A stretch of 64,000 bases of DNA from Lachnospiraceae bacterium (GTDB lineage: Bacteria > Bacillota > Clostridia > Lachnospirales > Lachnospiraceae): assembly GCA_022647575.1 (NCBI GenBank), contig JALCKY010000001.1, forward strand, positions 620,001-684,000, written 5' to 3'. The notes beneath the pieces are model-generated. The model ran no database searches. It was given only the letters and a program-made list of their open reading frames with translations, and was not told where the DNA came from. This document shows positions 38,558-57,113 of this stretch, one piece after another. The translations under genes and the position numbers were made by a program. Position 1 is the first letter of the stretch; every line of letters starts with the position of its first letter.

Positions 38558-41500
38558 TTAAGCTTTACCTTCTTTTGCTGTCTTCCAATTGCCTGTAATC
38601 GCGTTCTGTGTTTCTGGCGTAACAGCAGCTGTTCCGCCAAGAATCCAAAGCTGAGAAACATTAGCACTTGCCTTTGTCAGTTCATCAGTAGTAAGTGTAA
38701 AACCTGCGCCTGATGTTCCATCAACAAGGAGAATCGGTGCGCCAAAATATTCTTTTTCATACTGATGACTCCTGAAGCATTATATCCGTCAAGAATTGTT
38801 GATGCTCTGCCCTGGAGCATTCCGCCGACTAGAGCATCCGCGTAATGCGTATCGAGACCTGATGCATAAGCAGTGTTGTCATAAAGAACAGGTGCAGCTG
38901 CCAGAGTAGTATGTGCTAGCATCTGTATAGATTGTTGTATTCTTCAGGCCAGAAGCAAACTGTTTTGCAATGGCAACAGATGTTTCATAACGATCATCAC
39001 CAGCAAGACGTGTTGCCGTATGTCCGGAAACTGCTTTTAATGCTGTTTCAGCATCTTTATTTACAACTGCCGTTCCGCCAAGTAAATAAGTTGTTGCGAA
39101 GGACTTTGCGATTGTTAAAGAAGAGCTGTCAAGCACTCCGTTATCTCCTGCGAGGAAGATTGGCATAGCCTTAGAATACGTCCAAGGTGAAATTGAAAGT
39201 GCATCTGCTGCTTTCAGTCCGGTTGCAATAACAGCTGAATCGCCCCAAATAGACGAACCACTGTCCGCTGTCAGACCATTGAGGTAAACAACCTTAGCTG
39301 TTTCATATCTGTCATCACCGGCATAACGATTAATCGTTGTAACACCAGCACTTGTCAATGCTGTCTCGACATCCTTTGTCACGACTGCCGTGCCACCGAT
39401 GATATAAATGGTCTTAACACCCCAGCCGGTTATCAAATCTTTTGTTGCATCCGGAAGAGTTGATGTATCAGTGAGAAGAATCGGAAGATCAAGCCCGCCT
39501 GCAAAACCGCTTGCTGTAAGAGCATCAGCAAAGCTCATTCCGGAAACAAGAACGGCTGCATCTGGAGTCGCATCAGAAAATGCCTGTTTTGCGATTGCTG
39601 CTGCTGTAAGATATCTTGTATCTCCGCTGAGACGCTCATAATAGACAGATGTTGATTTATCTGCGATTGTGATGGTCTGTGATACTGCTTCACCTCCAGC
39701 TGTCGGCGTTGCAGTCAGTGTTACGGTTCCGGCTGTCAGAGCTTTAATTCCGACAACTGTTTTCGCATCCCATGCACCTACTGTATTTCCGTCTGCATCA
39801 ACGAATTCTGCAGTTCCCGTACCTGGTACGATGCTCCATGTAACTTCCCTGCTATCGGTTGTATTTGAAGGATAATAAGATACAGATGGCATATCTGCTA
39901 TATCATCAATAGCCATTGTACTTGTTGCCGGGATAGAAATCTTGGATAAAGACACTTCCGAAGGGACAATCTTTGCTGTAAATGTTCCGCAAGTGAATTT
40001 TGTTCCGCTTGCAGCATCGGTGTAATAAACAGTTACGGTTTCATCCGCAATCATTGTTGTGCCTGTAAGAGCCGGGTCAAAGCTAAACGGCTGGCTTCCA
40101 GCAGCACTGTCATAGATGATTGTCTTTGTATTTCCGCCTTCATATGTAGCTTTGATTGAAAGTCCGTCAGCATTAATTGTGTCTGTTCCGGTTACATATG
40201 TAAGTGTTGTCGGAACATCCTTGATTTTTGCTGCTGTCATTGCCGCAGCAGTAACATCGACTGTCGCATCATCTTTAATATAGTTCGTTCCCTTGATGGT
40301 ATAATTTGCATTATCAAGAGCACTGATGGTTACTTTTGCATATACGCCTGGAGCGGCTGTATCTGTAGCACCGTCTCCAAGAACCACGGATGCATTTACT
40401 GCATTTACTTTGTCGTTTGCAGAAATTTCTGTATTTGCCGCAGCATTTGTTAATGCGAGGCTGGCTACTTTATAAGAAGTAGCTGAATACTGCTTAATAC
40501 TTGGCAGTGTAAATGAAGTCTTGGAAAGATCAATAATTTTCTTATCTACAGTGACCGTACCTAACGTAATTCCGGTTGCAGTTCCATAGACAATTGTATC
40601 TTTTGTTGTATCTGTAGGTGTTTCAGTCCAGCCAGTTGTAACATCACCGATAACAGTGTATGTATCGCCTGCTTTTAATGTTAAAGGAGAAGCTGCGGAT
40701 GCGGTAACTGCTGTATCACCTTTTTTAAGACCTGTTACTGTAACAGCTGCTGTCTCCACTTACTGTATAGCCGGTTGCTGCTTTAACAGTCGGTGTAATT
40801 GTTGCATAAAGAGCTGAATCTAAACCTGCTGCATCGGTAATCTTATCACCTGTATAAGTAATATTTGCAATCGTGAAGTTTGTGCTGCTCGGTGTAGCTT
40901 TGCCTGCATTATTCAGTTCTGTAGGAACAGAGGCAAGTGATGTAACAGTATCATCAGCAGTTTTATAATAGTACAGATAAACAACATCATCATCAGCAAG
41001 AGCTGTATCATTTACAGTCACAGTCTTTTTATCTTCAGAGATTGTGACGGCGGCATCGGTTTTAACGTTTCCTAATTCAGCATCAAATTCTGTATATGCC
41101 TTATCTGCTGTGAAATATCCTACAGAAACACCATCCGGAACAGCTGTCTTTAATGTAACAACTGCACCTGCGCCAGCTGTCAGATCAGCGCTCTTAACAT
41201 CCGGCGTGCTGACGGAAGAATCGATTAACGTAAGTTCAGCAGTCGTCTTCCTACCGGAAATTGTTACAAACAGAGCTTTCGTTCTGTCATTCAGATCAAG
41301 ATTCGCAACTGGCTGATAACCGGCATTTGCTGCAGTTAAAAGCTGAATTGAAGGTCCAGTAGCAGCACCTGCGACAACATAACCGGAAGCACCTCCGCCA
41401 GTTACATCTGTAAGGGTATCTCTTGTAAGAGTTCCATCAATATATCCACTTGTATTGTCAATTTCATAAGCACTCGGAAGATAGAACTGAGCAGATGATA

Positions 41501-41954
41501 CACCAGGATCATGAATCGTTGCCTTTACAGAACCTTCAACGGTCTTATTTGCATAATCATGAGCACCTAAAGTATCAATATTTGTTGCCTGGAAAAGTCC
41601 TAATTCAGCTGCAGAAAAATACGCTTTTGTATTCGCAAGCCATGATGTGCTTGATGATGCACTTGACTTTGCAATATTCAGAACATTCGCTTTGTTTTGT
41701 TTATCTGCGGAAACGGTGTTGCTTAAAATGTCCCAAGCAACCGGAACTGTTTCGCTGTCAGATGTTGTTTTTCCAAATTTCAGAACTGTCGTACCTTTTG
41801 TATATGCACTCATATTGTTTGCAAAATAGATGCCGTCATCGCCAGCAGCTGCATACACCGTCGATGTCATAGCCGGGATTGCACCGCTCATGGTCAGCGC
41901 CATAGCTGCTGATAACACCCATGAAAGGGCCTTGCCCATAACCTTATTCTTCAT
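38558..41954 (-). pseudogene. CWB2 surface (S-layer-like) protein, three frameshifts
   Basis: Repaired, this is about 1130 residues. From 41954: signal peptide (KALSWVLSAAMALTMSG, ending near VYAAAG), a unique N-terminal domain resembling DUF6273-like surface domains (VPVAWDILSN), Ig-like stalk units (KIKDVPTTLTYVTGTDTINA; LSKISIPATS), and three CWB2 repeats starting RLSGDTRYLTA, RYAGDDRYETA and RLAGDDRYETS. The last frame ends with ILGGTAAVTPETQNAITG and the stop at 38558. Frames change near 40750, near 38910 and near 38770. Low GC, alanine- and threonine-rich, strong promoter and a 300-base leader suggest an abundant surface protein. Paralogue of the gene at 34851-37388. Confidence 0.85.
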
Positions 41955-52962: not shown

Positions 52963-53013
52963 CGCCGTCTCCGATGGTCTGCGCGACGTTTCCGTCCGCT
53001 GTTTTTTCGTGAC

Positions 53014-53029
53014 GTGAGCCGTGGCTCAC
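53014..53029. promoter_or_regulatory. Candidate TetR operator
   Basis: GTGAGCC-GT-GGCTCAC, a 16-base palindrome with 7-base arms, about 50 bases upstream of the tetR start. Confidence 0.65.
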
Positions 53030-53122
53030 AAGATAAGAACAGCATACCATCACCGTGCCATTTTGCACAGCCTGAGTAATCAACAAATCGGATGCGCTTT
53101 TTTTGTGAGATTTTGCAGAAAA

Positions 53123-53189
53123 GAACCACGGGGACGGGGGTGGTGGTTCCGTTTTCCGTCCGGAACCATCACCCCCGTCCCCGTGGTTC
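53123..53189. repeat. GC-rich hairpin repeat, inverted pair between the permease and tetR promoter
   Basis: Left arm 53123-53150 and right arm 53162-53189 are reverse complements with one mismatch (ATC for ACC), loop of 11 bases, followed by TCTTTTTTT on the plus strand. It lies just after the permease stop codon on the minus strand and probably terminates it. Confidence 0.88.
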
Positions 53190-53199
53190 TCTTTTTTTC

Positions 53200-54291
53200 T
53201 TACGCCAGCTTCATATCTCCATCCTTAACCCAGCCCCTCTTCCGGCAGAAGAGGTTGATGAGCGGGCACAGGACTGCCGGCAAAATGAAGCAGATCATGA
53301 AAAGTCCCAGCCAGTCGAACCAGGTGATGGCGCCCTTCGCGCCGGACGCGACATCCGCCGCCCATCCGGTATAGATGCCGATCTGCCCGACGAAGCCGCA
53401 GGTTCCCATGCCGGACGACACCGGCGTTCCGTTCATCTGCAGGCCGAAGAGGCACGTCGCCAGCGGCCCGGTAATGGCACTGGTCACGATCGGCGCGATC
53501 CAGATGCGCGGGTTCTTGACGATGTTTCCCATCTGCAGCATGGACGTCCCGATTCCCTGGGAAATGAGTCCGCCCCATTTATTTTCGGGAAAGCTCATGA
53601 CCGCGAAACCGATCATCTGCGCGCAGCATCCGGCAACCGCCGCACCGCCTGCCAGCCCGGTCAGCCCGAGGGCGGCACAGATGGCGGCAGAGGAAATCGG
53701 CAGCGTCAGGGCGATCCCGACGACGACCGATACGATGATTCCCATTAGGAACGGCTGCAGGTTCGTCGCCCACATGATGATATTTCCGACGGACATCGCC
53801 GCGGTTCCCAGAGGCGGAGCCCACCAGGCCGACAGCGCAATGCCCACGCCGATCGTAACGAGCGGCGTCACCAGGATATCCACTTTTGTTTCCTTGGAAA
53901 CAGCCTTGCCGACTTCCGAAGTGATGATGGCAACGAAGAGGACTGCCAGCGGTCCGCCGGCACCCCCGAGCGCATTGGAGGCAAACCCGACCGTGATCAA
54001 AGAAAACAGGACCAGCGGCGGACAGTGCAGCGCATAGCCGATGGCCACGGCCATCGCCGGCCCGCTCATCGCCACGGCGAGTCCGCCGACGGTATAGTCG
54101 GTCTTGGCTATCGTCGCGACCGTAGTCGTGAGGAATCCGATGTGGAACTGAATGCCCAGCGTGTTGATGATGGTCCCGATCAGAAGCGAACAGAACAGGC
54201 CCTGCGCCATCGCGCCGAGCGCATCGATTCCGTACCGCTTTGCCGAAATGACGATATCCTTGCGTTTCAGAAAAGCCTTGAATTTTTCCAT
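53200..54291 (-). CDS. EIIC-type (PTS_EIIC_2) membrane permease, orphan
   Basis: 363 residues, about 9-10 hydrophobic segments with Gly-rich helices (VGGLAVAMSGPAMAVAIGYA; GLTGLAGGAAVAGCCAQMIG), matching PTS transporter subunit IIC-like proteins of the PF13303 type. The conserved PENKWGG loop and GMGTCGFVGQ are visible. No EIIA or EIIB gene is near, so transport may be PTS-independent or served by distant subunits. Start at 54291 with GGGGGAG upstream. It may belong with the kinase operon functionally, but a strong hairpin separates them. Confidence 0.75.
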   Translation of the reverse strand: MEKFKAFLKRKDIVISAKRYGIDALGAMAQGLFCSLLIGTIINTLGIQFHIGFLTTTVATIAKTDYTVGGLAVAMSGPAMAVAIGYALHCPPLVLFSLITVGFASNALGGAGGPLAVLFVAIITSEVGKAVSKETKVDILVTPLVTIGVGIALSAWWAPPLGTAAMSVGNIIMWATNLQPFLMGIIVSVVVGIALTLPISSAAICAALGLTGLAGGAAVAGCCAQMIGFAVMSFPENKWGGLISQGIGTSMLQMGNIVKNPRIWIAPIVTSAITGPLATCLFGLQMNGTPVSSGMGTCGFVGQIGIYTGWAADVASGAKGAITWFDWLGLFMICFILPAVLCPLINLFCRKRGWVKDGDMKLA

Positions 54292-54410
54292 TTTTCTCCC
54301 CCGCAGATCTTCCCGCATTTGAAAAGATAATAAACGGTGAAGAGACATTTGTAAAGTTGCTTCCCGTGAATGAACGCACAAAAATGAATCCTTCACAGAT
54401 ACACGGTAAT

Positions 54411-54968
54411 TTATCCCGCAATCAGCGTGAAGACCGTGCGCGCCGCCATGAAGGCAGCCGTGATGATGAGGGGAATGGTGCCGTCGATGAAGGCGGCTTC
54501 TTTTTCAAGATTATAATAAGCCATATAGAAGTACATCACCGCAATGACCGCGGCGGCAAGAATCACGATAAAAATAACAGCTCCGGCAAATGAAAGCTTT
54601 TCCGTGCCGTAAAGAAGATTGATCAGGGACAGTTCGAGAATGACCCAGCCGTCGATCAGCAGAAGTTCCAGCGTGATCTGGCGGTGCATGAAAAACCAGG
54701 TGATCAGGATCAGAAGGATGTAGGCTGCAAAACCGCAGACGATCAGAATCATCCCGTTGAAAAGGGACCTCTTCATCACGGCCGAACGGATCGCGCCGAC
54801 GAGCTGCACGACGCCGATGATTCCGACGACGGTTGCCGTCCCGACCAGAAGGGCAGCCAGCCAGGTACGCCTTGCTTCGACACCGGGCTTGAACGCGACA
54901 ATCCACCATGCCAGATAAAACAGATTGCAGAGAATCAGCAGCAGACTGCCGGTCATCAGTTTATTCAT
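54411..54968 (-). CDS. Unknown six-helix membrane protein
   Basis: 185 residues with six hydrophobic segments (about 5-25, 38-60, 70-92, 98-115, 125-147, 160-180). Repeated short loops with few charges and a C-terminal AAFMAARTVFTLIAG. No known domain is recognised. It starts 3 bases after the stop of the short HTH gene, so the two are coupled and both lie behind the riboswitch-like leader. A membrane effector of c-di-GMP signalling is an inference from that position only. Confidence 0.7.
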   Translation of the reverse strand: MNKLMTGSLLLILCNLFYLAWWIVAFKPGVEARRTWLAALLVGTATVVGIIGVVQLVGAIRSAVMKRSLFNGMILIVCGFAAYILLILITWFFMHRQITLELLLIDGWVILELSLINLLYGTEKLSFAGAVIFIVILAAAVIAVMYFYMAYYNLEKEAAFIDGTIPLIITAAFMAARTVFTLIAG

Positions 54969-54969
54969 T

Positions 54970-55392
54970 TCATCTCGTTTCTTCACCGACTGCCGTTTCC
55001 AGAGGCTCCAGCAGCGAGGATGCTTCGTAAACGCTGGCAAGTCTTGTCAGCTTGCGCACGATTTTCCGGCACTTCTCCTGCGGAATGGTTTTGTCGGAAT
55101 TGACAGCATCTATAATAATCTTTAATTCAGAAAAATCAAATTCCCGTTCGGTCATATAGAAGTGGCTTCCCGCGCTTCTTTTTGATTTGATTGAATAGCC
55201 GGCGGCCACCAGTGTCTCGACGTCATTTTTCACGGTCTTCCGGTTGACTTCGACGCCGCGTTTTGCAAACCATTCGATGATCTGTCTGGTTGTCAGAGGA
55301 TGCGTTTCATCCGTCTGTTCATAAAGAAGCCGGTACATATAGACCAGCCTTCCTTTTTTATTCACGTCTTCGATTACTTTGATCTTTGCCAT
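54970..55392 (-). CDS. WYL-type HTH regulator, N-terminal half only
   Basis: 140 residues. The winged HTH at the N-terminus (MYRLLYEQTDETHPLTTRQI; NRKTVKNDVETLVAAGYSI) and the following EFDFSELKIIIDAVNSDKTI match clostridial WYL-domain regulators, which are normally about 300 residues. The chain stops after LTRLASVYEASSLLEPLE, before any WYL domain. Either it is a naturally short family member or the C-terminal half was replaced by the downstream membrane gene. GGAGG lies 4 bases before the ATG and a terminator lies just upstream, so expression depends on read-through. Confidence 0.8.
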   Translation of the reverse strand: MAKIKVIEDVNKKGRLVYMYRLLYEQTDETHPLTTRQIIEWFAKRGVEVNRKTVKNDVETLVAAGYSIKSKRSAGSHFYMTEREFDFSELKIIIDAVNSDKTIPQEKCRKIVRKLTRLASVYEASSLLEPLETAVGEETR

Positions 55393-55404
55393 GTTTCCTC
55401 CAAC

Positions 55405-55434
55405 AAAAAAGGGACCGTGCCGATAGCACAGTCC
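55405..55434 (-). terminator. Terminator between the riboswitch-like aptamer and the HTH gene
   Basis: Minus strand: GGACTGTGC-TATCG-GCACGGTCC followed by CTTTTTT, 13 bases before the start codon. Its position makes it the expression platform of the element upstream. Confidence 0.9.
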
Positions 55435-55435
55435 G

Positions 55436-55515
55436 TCTGCAACTGGCTGCCATTCCTATACGGAGAAGGCCCTTATCAGCTTTGCGGCCCAGCCTTTCGG
55501 CTGGTGTGCTCATTC
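55436..55515 (-). ncRNA. Probable c-di-GMP-I (GEMM-I) riboswitch aptamer
   Basis: Minus strand, in order: GAGCACACC, stem CCAGCC-GAAA-GGCTGG (55489-55504) with the GNRA tetraloop of GEMM P2, the joining core CGCAAAGC (55479-55486), GGGCCT, and ATGGCAGCCAGTTGC (ending 55439). This order and these core bases are the class hallmarks. Promoter upstream and terminator downstream complete a transcriptional switch. GGCAAACC is altered to GCACACC, so a related ligand (cGAMP-type variant) cannot be excluded. Confidence 0.75.
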
Positions 55516-55520
55516 ACCTA

Positions 55521-55549
55521 ATGATATTTCGAAATCAGAAAGATTGCAA
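55521..55549 (-). promoter_or_regulatory. Promoter of the riboswitch-controlled operon
   Basis: Minus strand: TTGCAA (55544-55549), 17 bases, TATCAT (55521-55526). The transcript would start near 55514, at the aptamer. 55550-55682 holds only AT-rich sequence and the MATE promoter. Confidence 0.7.
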
Positions 55550-55670
55550 GCATTCTTTTCTGGATTTTATTGTTTTTATTTTCTCTTAATTTTTTCGTTC
55601 ATTTACACCCTTATTTGCGCCTTTGTTTTCCCGTTCATCCCCCCGCCTGTTCAAAAGCCGCTTTCTCTGC

Positions 55671-55676
55671 TATACT
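55671..55676 (+). promoter_or_regulatory. Candidate -10 box of the MATE gene
   Basis: TATACT only 6 bases before the ATG at 55683, without a ribosome binding site. The -35 position is poor. If used, the mRNA would be leaderless. Confidence 0.35.
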
Positions 55677-55682
55677 GGTAAA

Positions 55683-57113
55683 ATGAATTCCGGGTTTGAA
55701 AAACTTTCCGTGCGCCGCTCCCTCATCGGGGACAGGGCTTTCTATCATCGGGTTTTCGTGATCATCCTCCCGATGATTGTTCAGAATACCCTTTCGAGCG
55801 TCCTGGGCCTTCTGGACAATATCATGGTCGGGCAGATCGGCACCCTGCCCATGTCCGCCGTCGCCATCACGAGCCAGCTGTTTTTCGTCTTCTATCTGAC
55901 ACTTTTCGGGGCACTGGCCGGCGCCGGCATCTACGGCGCGCAGTTCTTCGGCAGCGGAAATACGGAAGGCGTGCGCAACACCCTGCGCGTCAAATTCATG
56001 GTCGGCTTCCTCCTGACCGCCGCGGCAATGCTGCTGTTCTTCTTTGCGGGGGATGCGATCATCGCTTCCTTCATTTCCGCCGGGACTCCGGAGGCGGACC
56101 GCGTCGCGACGCTCTCCTATGCGCACGATTATCTTTTCATCATGATTCTCGGAATGCTTCCGTTCGCCGTCACTTCCAGCTATGCCAGCACGCTCCGGGA
56201 ATGCGGAAAGACCGCCCTTCCGATGAAGGCCGGCATTATCGCGATGATCACCAATTTCATTTTCAATTCCCTGCTGATTTTCGGCCTTTTCGGATTTCCG
56301 AAGCTGGGCGTGGCCGGTGCCGCGATTGCGACGGTGCTCTCCCGTTTCGTGGAAGCCTTCATCGTCGTCTTCTTCTCGCACCGGAATAAAAAAACCTATG
56401 GTTTCCTTGAAGGGCTGTACAGGCGCCTCACCGTTCCGCGTGCCTTTTTCTTCCAGGTCGTCGCCAAGAGCGCCCCGCTTCTCATCAATGAATTCATGTG
56501 GTCGGCCGGGCAGGCTTTCAGCCTGCAGTGTTTCTCGCACCGCGGCATCGCAGTCATCGCCGCCCTGAACATCTGCTACACGGTTTCCGACATCTGCCAT
56601 CAGGTTTACATAACTTTAGGCAGTGCTGCCCAGATCGTCATCGGGCAGGAACTTGGTGCCAACCATCTGACCGATGCCCGCTACTCGGCATGGCGCATGA
56701 TCACGCTGGCCACTGCCTGCTGCGTCCTGACCGGCATTCTCCTGGCGGTCTGCGCCCCGTTCATTCCTCTCATCTACAATACGGAAAATGAGATCCGTCA
56801 GATGGCCACCGGTTTTCTTCTGATCACCGCCTGCTGCCTGCCGCTCTTCGGCTTCGACACCACGGAATATTTCGTGCTGCGCTCCGGCGGCAAGACTGTC
56901 ATCACGTTTCTCTTCGACAGCTGCTTCTCCTGGTGCGTGACCATCCCGGCAACCTTCCTGCTGATTTATTTCACGGATCTTTCCATCATGCCGATCTTCG
57001 CTGTCGTCTGCGGCAGCGACCTCATCAAATGCATCATCGGCTTCGTCCTCGTCAAAAAGGGAATCTGGGTAAAGAACCTGGTCTCACAGGAAACGCCGCC
57101 GGCCTCAGCATGA
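55683..57113 (+). CDS. MATE-family multidrug/cation antiporter
   Basis: 476 residues with 12 hydrophobic segments in two similar halves. Exports drugs or metabolites against Na+ or H+. VQNTLSSVLGLLDNIMVGQIG near helix 1, GAGIYGAQFFG after helix 2 and IVIGQELGANHLTDA in the second half are MATE motifs. The start is placed at 55683, just before NSGFEKLSVRRSL. It ends 37 bases before the convergent ABC permease gene; no clear terminator is seen between them. Confidence 0.9.
   Translation: MNSGFEKLSVRRSLIGDRAFYHRVFVIILPMIVQNTLSSVLGLLDNIMVGQIGTLPMSAVAITSQLFFVFYLTLFGALAGAGIYGAQFFGSGNTEGVRNTLRVKFMVGFLLTAAAMLLFFFAGDAIIASFISAGTPEADRVATLSYAHDYLFIMILGMLPFAVTSSYASTLRECGKTALPMKAGIIAMITNFIFNSLLIFGLFGFPKLGVAGAAIATVLSRFVEAFIVVFFSHRNKKTYGFLEGLYRRLTVPRAFFFQVVAKSAPLLINEFMWSAGQAFSLQCFSHRGIAVIAALNICYTVSDICHQVYITLGSAAQIVIGQELGANHLTDARYSAWRMITLATACCVLTGILLAVCAPFIPLIYNTENEIRQMATGFLLITACCLPLFGFDTTEYFVLRSGGKTVITFLFDSCFSWCVTIPATFLLIYFTDLSIMPIFAVVCGSDLIKCIIGFVLVKKGIWVKNLVSQETPPASA

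What the first reader, a model, noticed from the sequence alone, without database searches (positions are those of the whole stretch)
54411..55549. c-di-GMP-I-like riboswitch controlling a half-length WYL regulator and an unknown membrane protein
Promoter, GNRA-capped P2 stem, CGCAAAGC core, GGCAGCCAGTTGC tail and a terminator lie in the correct order on the minus strand just before a 140-residue HTH gene coupled to a six-helix protein. GEMM riboswitches usually control motility, surface or c-di-GMP turnover genes. A truncated WYL regulator joined to an unknown membrane protein would be a new kind of target. The altered GGCAAACC segment may signal changed ligand preference.
Basis: partly seen in the sequence, partly recalled or inferred. 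Interest (0 to 1): 0.75.

Follow-up and report, generated by a model that had tools for sequence, protein, structure and literature searches.

The report
Riboswitch ahead of truncated WYL regulator
A cyclic-dinucleotide riboswitch sits in front of a gene for the DNA-binding half of a regulator and a small membrane protein, and a sister riboswitch elsewhere in the same genome precedes the full-length version of that regulator, which suggests that switch and regulator were copied together and one copy then lost its own sensor domain.

Summary
Rfam's c-di-GMP-I (GEMM-I) model matches 55520..55435 (-), full length, 50.8 bits (cut-off 35). A terminator, an RBS, a 140-aa HTH gene and, 4 nt later, a six-helix membrane protein gene follow. 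"Truncated WYL regulator" is supported: a 329-aa WYL+WCX protein in this genome is 57% identical over 132 residues and also follows a GEMM-I aptamer. The two aptamers are mutual best matches (79%, shared 2-nt insertion) among 17 compared. The riboswitch-regulator unit was most likely duplicated, and one copy lost WYL-WCX. The pairing looks local: 0 of 66 other WYL-homologue loci carry RF01051, and in seven contexts the membrane protein has other neighbours. Ligand-contact position 20 is A, not G, here and in 3 of the other 4 aptamers of the genome. That could mean cGAMP, but no Hypr GGDEF or SMODS cGAMP synthase was found, so c-di-GMP is likelier. The terminator leaves the ligand pocket free, which favours an OFF switch; polarity is unproven. 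The aptamer is a new member of a known class; its target is a new variant.

The parts
55521..55549 (-). candidate promoter TTGCAA-17-TATCAT
   Evidence: 9 of 12 consensus matches; 4 sites found in 1.55 kb against 1.4 in shuffles; weak
55519..55531 (-). 13-nt element CGAAATATCATTA shared (one degenerate position) with the promoter region of the sister WYL locus; candidate operator or relic of common descent
   Evidence: the two loci are the only exact matches in 3.03 Mb (the pattern was derived from them); a shared same-strand 10-mer in 11 of 1000 dinucleotide shuffles, either strand 49 of 1000; modest
55435..55520 (-). c-di-GMP-I (GEMM-I) riboswitch aptamer
   Evidence: RF01051 50.8 bits, gathering 35, model 1-87/87
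55510..55510 (-). aptamer position equivalent to Vc2 G20, here A
   Evidence: alignment, model position 11; Cd1 G11 = Vc2 G20 from a PMC9262584 passage, mapping to the Rfam model by my own reading
55439..55439 (-). conserved C expected to pair with the ligand (Vc2 C92, pilM C75 equivalent)
   Evidence: invariant in the alignment of five; role of pilM C75 from PMC9262584 passages, equivalence recalled
55405..55434 (-). intrinsic terminator: GGACTGTGC-TATCG-GCACGGTCC then CTTTTTT
   Evidence: folds together with the enforced aptamer pairs (-39.0 kcal/mol)
55397..55401 (-). ribosome-binding site GGAGG
   Evidence: sequence
54970..55392 (-). 140-aa winged-HTH protein: DNA-binding part of a WYL regulator without WYL and WCX domains
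   Evidence: 56-57% identical to the N-terminal 132-134 residues of the 329-aa paralogue; model; best fold match DriD (weak)
54411..54965 (-). 184-aa six-helix membrane protein of unknown function, starts 4 nt after the HTH stop codon
   Evidence: no family over its cut-off; homologues in 9 of 42 genomes of the genus including this one; six helices, low confidence

Best explanation
This is a transcription-terminating GEMM-I riboswitch that sets the amount of a DNA-binding protein derived from a WYL regulator, together with a small membrane protein made from the same message. The unit arose by duplication of a GEMM-I/WYL-regulator unit; in this copy the WYL and WCX sensor part was lost, so sensing rests on the RNA upstream. 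Most likely ligand: c-di-GMP, with relaxed or altered selectivity because position 20 is A. Most likely polarity: OFF. The terminator can form while the aptamer fold is intact; without ligand the nascent RNA may fold otherwise and read through. The protein most likely binds a site like that of its full-length paralogue and competes or forms mixed dimers with it. Shown here: aptamer, terminator, sequence kinship of both aptamers and both proteins, no detectable WYL remnant. Inferred: duplication order, ligand, polarity, target sites, role of the membrane protein.
For: Aptamer: (50.8 bits). Sister locus: C2 aptamer 43.3 bits directly before a 329-aa protein with Pfam WYL 43.5 bits (cut-off 21.8) and WCX 24.8 bits (cut-off 23.9). 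Protein kinship: 57% over 132 aa; the next match by score in those 61 genomes is 41% over about 120 aa. Aptamer kinship: 79%, mutual best among 17 compared, FastTree local support 0.91, shared 2-nt insertion. Selection: dN 0.39, dS 3.3 (saturated), codon positions 61/80/39% identical. No WYL remnant: best tblastn E 0.62 within 53000-56000 and 1.2 in the whole window. Polarity: the terminator starts 5 nt downstream of the ligand-pairing C and coexists with the aptamer, unlike the ON switch pilM, whose terminator sequesters that C (PMC9262584, passages); class I switches of C. difficile are OFF switches (PMC11477304, passage). Ligand: 17 GGDEF matches; the ten with an intact GGDEF/GGEEF motif all keep D at the HxxGD position; no SMODS nucleotidyltransferase.
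Against: No expression or binding data. A competing pairing (AGCACA with UGUGCU) appears in partial transcripts, but the terminator arm's best duplex with the aptamer is no stronger than that of shuffled arms (834 of 2000 as good), so no antiterminator is established. No clear P1 stem. In the protein tree the fork joining window and paralogue is not resolved, although they are nearest by path. A at position 20 is the hallmark of the cGAMP subclass. The genome is 94.3% complete, so a synthase may be missed; only the GGDEF and SMODS families were searched.
Confidence: 0.58

Rival explanations
1. The aptamer is a cGAMP (GEMM-Ib type) sensor: A20 aptamers in this species report cGAMP made by an unrecognised synthase.
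For: A at position 20 in 4 of the 5 aptamers of this genome and, by my reading, in 8 of the 18 hits in the genus. A to G at this position turns a cGAMP switch into a c-di-GMP switch (PMC6456294, passages). One A20 aptamer here lies upstream of type IV pilus genes, as does the Geobacter pilM switch (PMC9262584, passages).
Against: No S or T at the HxxGD position in the ten intact GGDEF domains of 17 matches; no SMODS protein. A20 also appears in 3 of 26 readable aptamers of the order, so it is not restricted to this species. PMC9262584 (passage) calls the position a selectivity factor, not a hard filter.
Confidence: 0.25
2. The switch is ON: ligand stabilises the aptamer and prevents termination, raising HTH and membrane protein levels.
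For: The Geobacter pgcA and pilM switches of the cGAMP subclass are ON switches (PMC6456294, PMC9262584, passages); pilus and surface-protein genes are other targets in this genome and such genes are commonly raised by c-di-GMP (general knowledge).
Against: The terminator stem uses none of the conserved pocket bases and folds alongside the aptamer.
Confidence: 0.35
3. The 140-aa gene is a decaying remnant of a WYL regulator, and the riboswitch now mainly controls the membrane protein.
For: The pair was not seen in the seven other contexts of the membrane protein; the sensor half is gone.
Against: Intact frame and RBS, third-position-biased divergence, 4-nt spacing to the next gene; free-standing HTH-only relatives after aroA in two genomes of another family (L127, L128) show that such proteins can persist.
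Confidence: 0.15

Closest known systems
c-di-GMP-I (GEMM-I) riboswitch, RF01051
   Same: full-length model match, GAAA-capped P2, conserved core and tail, terminator platform
   Different: A instead of G at position 20; target is a WYL-derived regulator
GEMM-Ib cGAMP riboswitches of Geobacter (for example pgcA, pilM)
   Same: A at position 20; a sister A20 aptamer in this genome lies upstream of type IV pilus genes
   Different: no Hypr synthase found; terminator does not overlap the ligand-pairing C as in pilM
CmrRST of C. difficile under a c-di-GMP-II riboswitch (PMC8844915, passages)
   Same: a c-di-GMP riboswitch controlling transcription regulators, that is, a hierarchical circuit
   Different: class II riboswitch; two-component response regulators, not a WYL derivative
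WYL-WCX transcription regulators (PafBC, DriD)
   Same: winged HTH and following helices; the paralogue has WYL and WCX; best Foldseek match of the window protein's model is DriD 8tpk (E 5.3e-3)
   Different: window protein lacks WYL and WCX

Membership tests
c-di-GMP-I riboswitch (RF01051) | covariance score above gathering threshold over the full model | tested here: met
   50.8 against 35, positions 1-87
c-di-GMP-I riboswitch (RF01051) | binding of c-di-GMP | not testable with these tools
   needs in-line probing or ITC
c-di-GMP-I riboswitch (RF01051) | 5' UTR position with an expression platform | tested here: met
   terminator 55434..55405, RBS, ATG 55392
c-di-GMP-I riboswitch (RF01051) | P1 stem closing the ligand pocket (recalled; not part of the Rfam pairs) | tested here: inconclusive
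   only weak duplexes between the two flanks (-3.1 kcal/mol for the window aptamer)
GEMM-Ib (cGAMP) subclass | A at position 20 | tested here: met
   alignment; for the siblings
GEMM-Ib (cGAMP) subclass | cGAMP synthase in the genome (Hypr GGDEF or DncV-like) | tested here: not met
   no S or T in the HxxGD column of the ten intact domains; SMODS none; 94.3% complete genome, other synthase families not searched
GEMM-Ib (cGAMP) subclass | selective cGAMP binding | not testable with these tools
   needs binding assays
WYL transcription regulator | N-terminal winged HTH homologous to WYL regulators | tested here: met
WYL transcription regulator | WYL domain | tested here: not met
   no WYL; no remnant in the window; so it is a WYL-derived HTH protein, not a WYL protein
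ON-type GEMM switch (pilM type) | terminator sequesters the ligand-pairing C | tested here: not met
   terminator stem starts 5 nt downstream of it

The most novel reading that the evidence does not exclude
Sensor swap with interference: after duplication, one WYL regulator lost its protein sensor and now relies on the upstream riboswitch alone; the two sister riboswitches tune the ratio of a full-length regulator to its own DNA-binding fragment, so a cyclic dinucleotide controls a regulator and its competitor at once, possibly through A20 aptamers of mixed c-di-GMP/cGAMP preference.
Probability: 0.22. Interest if true: 0.65.

Novelty: new variant of a known kind. Interest (0 to 1): 0.42.

Why it matters
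The class I c-di-GMP switches of C. difficile stand ahead of flagellar, adhesion, protease and small-protein genes and antitoxin RNAs (PMC11477304, passages). A duplicated riboswitch-regulator unit in which one protein lost its ligand domain would show sensing moving from protein to RNA, and would make a two-switch competition circuit directly testable.

Tried and rejected
Antiterminator: AGCACA (core) with UGUGCU (terminator arm) appears in folds of 95-101 nt. The null compared the arm's best duplex anywhere in the aptamer with shuffled arms, and 834 of 2000 were as good; it is not used as evidence. Related-loci scans of genome contigs for both proteins confirmed no relative, so no organism names were obtained. 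phmmer of the paralogue against PDB sequences gave nothing at E 0.01. The membrane protein's AlphaFold model is poor (mean pLDDT 57.5) and was not searched. The HTH model is moderate (69.1; residues 11-80 at block means 72-91); its fold matches are all above E 0.001. Co-location of RF01051 and WYL across 246 genomes of the order was compared only by eye on the listed rows, and not all GEMM rows were listed. The firmer test is cmscan of 66 WYL-homologue loci outside this genome, 0 with RF01051; these are the loci handed out, a part of all WYL matches. The protein tree left out L030 and L129 as fragments; the aptamer comparison left out L048. Literature: 'WYL domain'+riboswitch+c-di-GMP gave 0 papers and 'c-di-GMP-I riboswitch'+WYL 0, in an open-licence library only. 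Kellenberger 2015, Nelson 2015 and Ren 2015 are not held; nothing of them was read.

Full report
What is there. Rfam's c-di-GMP-I model matches window 55520..55435 on the minus strand with 50.8 bits (gathering 35), full length, and nothing else in the window reaches a gathering threshold. A terminator with a T-run follows at 55434..55405 (10 pairs counted), then GGAGG and ATG at 55392. The 140-aa frame ends at 54970. The membrane protein starts at ATG 54965, 4 nt after the stop codon; one search lists a longer frame from a TTG, but homologues begin near the ATG. The candidate promoter is a weak 9/12 match.

The first gene. Pfam gives only a sub-threshold HTH_11 match (19.8 bits, cut-off 25) and no WYL. 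The protein is nevertheless the N-terminal part of a WYL regulator. A protein on contig C2 of the same genome is 57% identical over 132 residues and carries WYL (43.5 bits) and WCX (24.8 bits), both above Pfam's cut-offs. A tblastn of that protein's residues 136-329 finds no remnant (best E 0.62 within 53000-56000, 1.2 in the whole window). The N-terminal halves diverge mainly at third codon positions (61, 80 and 39% identity at positions 1, 2 and 3; dN 0.39, dS 3.3 and saturated), consistent with purifying selection on at least one branch. A single-sequence AlphaFold model gives a winged HTH followed by helices (mean pLDDT 69.1). Its best Foldseek match is the WYL activator DriD, weakly (E 5.3e-3; no match below 0.001).

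The sister locus. The genome (3.03 Mb, 94.3% complete) holds five RF01051 matches, all over the cut-off. Downstream of them are: this HTH-membrane unit; the full-length WYL regulator on C2; type IV pilus-type genes on C9 (two T2SSE ATPases, the first about 320 nt downstream); a 1356-aa cell-wall-binding surface protein on C10; and on C4 an ECF sigma factor gene with a PrsW-type membrane protease gene further down. The window aptamer and the C2 aptamer are mutual best matches at 79% among 17 aptamers compared (of 18 hits; L048 was left out), share a 2-nt insertion after the core, and group with FastTree support 0.91. Proteins and aptamers agree, so the unit was most likely duplicated whole. The protein tree of 40 rows places the paralogue nearest by path (0.87 against 2.33 for the next) but leaves the fork unresolved. 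The two loci also share CGAAATATCAKTA upstream. It has only these two exact matches in the genome, but the pattern came from them; with up to one mismatch there are 11 places against 4 for the reversed control. A shared same-strand 10-mer arises in 11 of 1000 shuffles, on either strand in 49 of 1000, and two of the other nine pairs of own-genome leaders share a 9-mer. It is a lead for a shared operator, no more.

How local it is. Of 42 genomes of the genus, 8 including this one have RF01051 (above 40 genomes the filters are stricter and lose weak matches). Of 66 loci with WYL homologues outside this genome (28, 9, 29), none has RF01051 at gathering score within the stretch held; the two loci of the paralogue itself do. 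The membrane protein has homologues in 8 other genomes of the genus. I examined seven contexts, leaving out the weak match in G027. Among same-strand frames of at least 70 aa I saw no HTH gene beside it (by eye, no family search), and none has RF01051. In G017 a WYL gene lies on the same contig about 2.7 kb upstream of it. HTH-only relatives without RF01051 in the stretch held exist after aroA in two genomes of another family (L127, L128), so a WYL-less form is not unique.

Ligand. Model position 11, equivalent to Vc2 G20, is A in the window aptamer and in 4 of the 5 aptamers of this genome, and by my reading of the sequences in 8 of the 18 hits in the genus. In the 30 loci handed out for the order, the best-scoring ones, it is A in 3 of 26 readable by pattern; 4 were not readable. 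PMC6456294 (passages) reports that A to G at this position turns a cGAMP-selective switch to c-di-GMP; PMC9262584 (passage) calls it a selectivity factor rather than a hard filter. PF00990 has 17 matches. The ten with an intact GGDEF or GGEEF motif all keep D in the HxxGD column, where Hypr enzymes carry S or T (recalled; PMC6456294 lists a WspR D226S/E370D construct). No SMODS nucleotidyltransferase was found. Hence c-di-GMP is the likelier ligand, but cGAMP is not excluded.

Polarity. With the aptamer pairs enforced, the terminator still forms (-39.0 against -43.0 kcal/mol free), and its stem begins 5 nt downstream of the ligand-pairing C. That resembles the OFF switch Cd1, in which aptamer and terminator coexist, and differs from the ON switch pilM, in which they exclude each other (PMC9262584, passages). 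The terminator arm pairs with the aptamer no better than shuffled arms do (834 of 2000 as good), so no antiterminator is established. No convincing P1 stem was found. OFF is favoured, not shown.

Verdict. A GEMM-I riboswitch by covariance score, new member of a known class, with an unusual target: a WYL-derived, WYL-less DNA-binding protein whose full-length paralogue is under a sister riboswitch. The literature searches that paired WYL with c-di-GMP riboswitches found nothing (open-licence papers only). A c-di-GMP-II switch controlling transcription regulators is known (CmrRST, PMC8844915, passages). Not a categorically new system.

Noticed in passing
G000:C4:81947-82036 (L037 7948-8037, minus): The only G20 aptamer among the five GEMM-I matches of this genome lies before an ECF sigma factor gene, with small membrane protein and PrsW-type protease genes further down; an ECF operon under a GEMM-I switch looks unusual to me.
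   Followed up: partly
L047 (G015:C16:8706-8789) and L051 (G015:C43:12637-12721): Two GEMM-I aptamers with changed core pairs that look compensatory by eye: GGC/CGC became GCC/CGG in L047 and GGU/CAC in L051.
   Followed up: no
window 38879-41954 (minus): What looks like one surface protein with cell-wall-binding-type repeats lies in two overlapping frames (409 aa and 626 aa), which suggests a frameshift or assembly error (by eye).
   Followed up: no
L127 2924-3313 (+), L128 2997-3359 (-): Free-standing HTH-only WYL relatives (129 and 120 aa) directly after aroA in two genomes of another family, without GEMM in the stretch held.
   Followed up: partly
L007, L008, L009: WYL regulators behind an N-terminal stretch of about 200 aa that resembles a GDSL-type hydrolase (my reading of the sequence; 526-539 aa).
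   Followed up: no
G000, 17 GGDEF places: Seven of the 17 GGDEF matches lack an intact GGDEF/GGEEF motif, among them several on contig C8.
   Followed up: no
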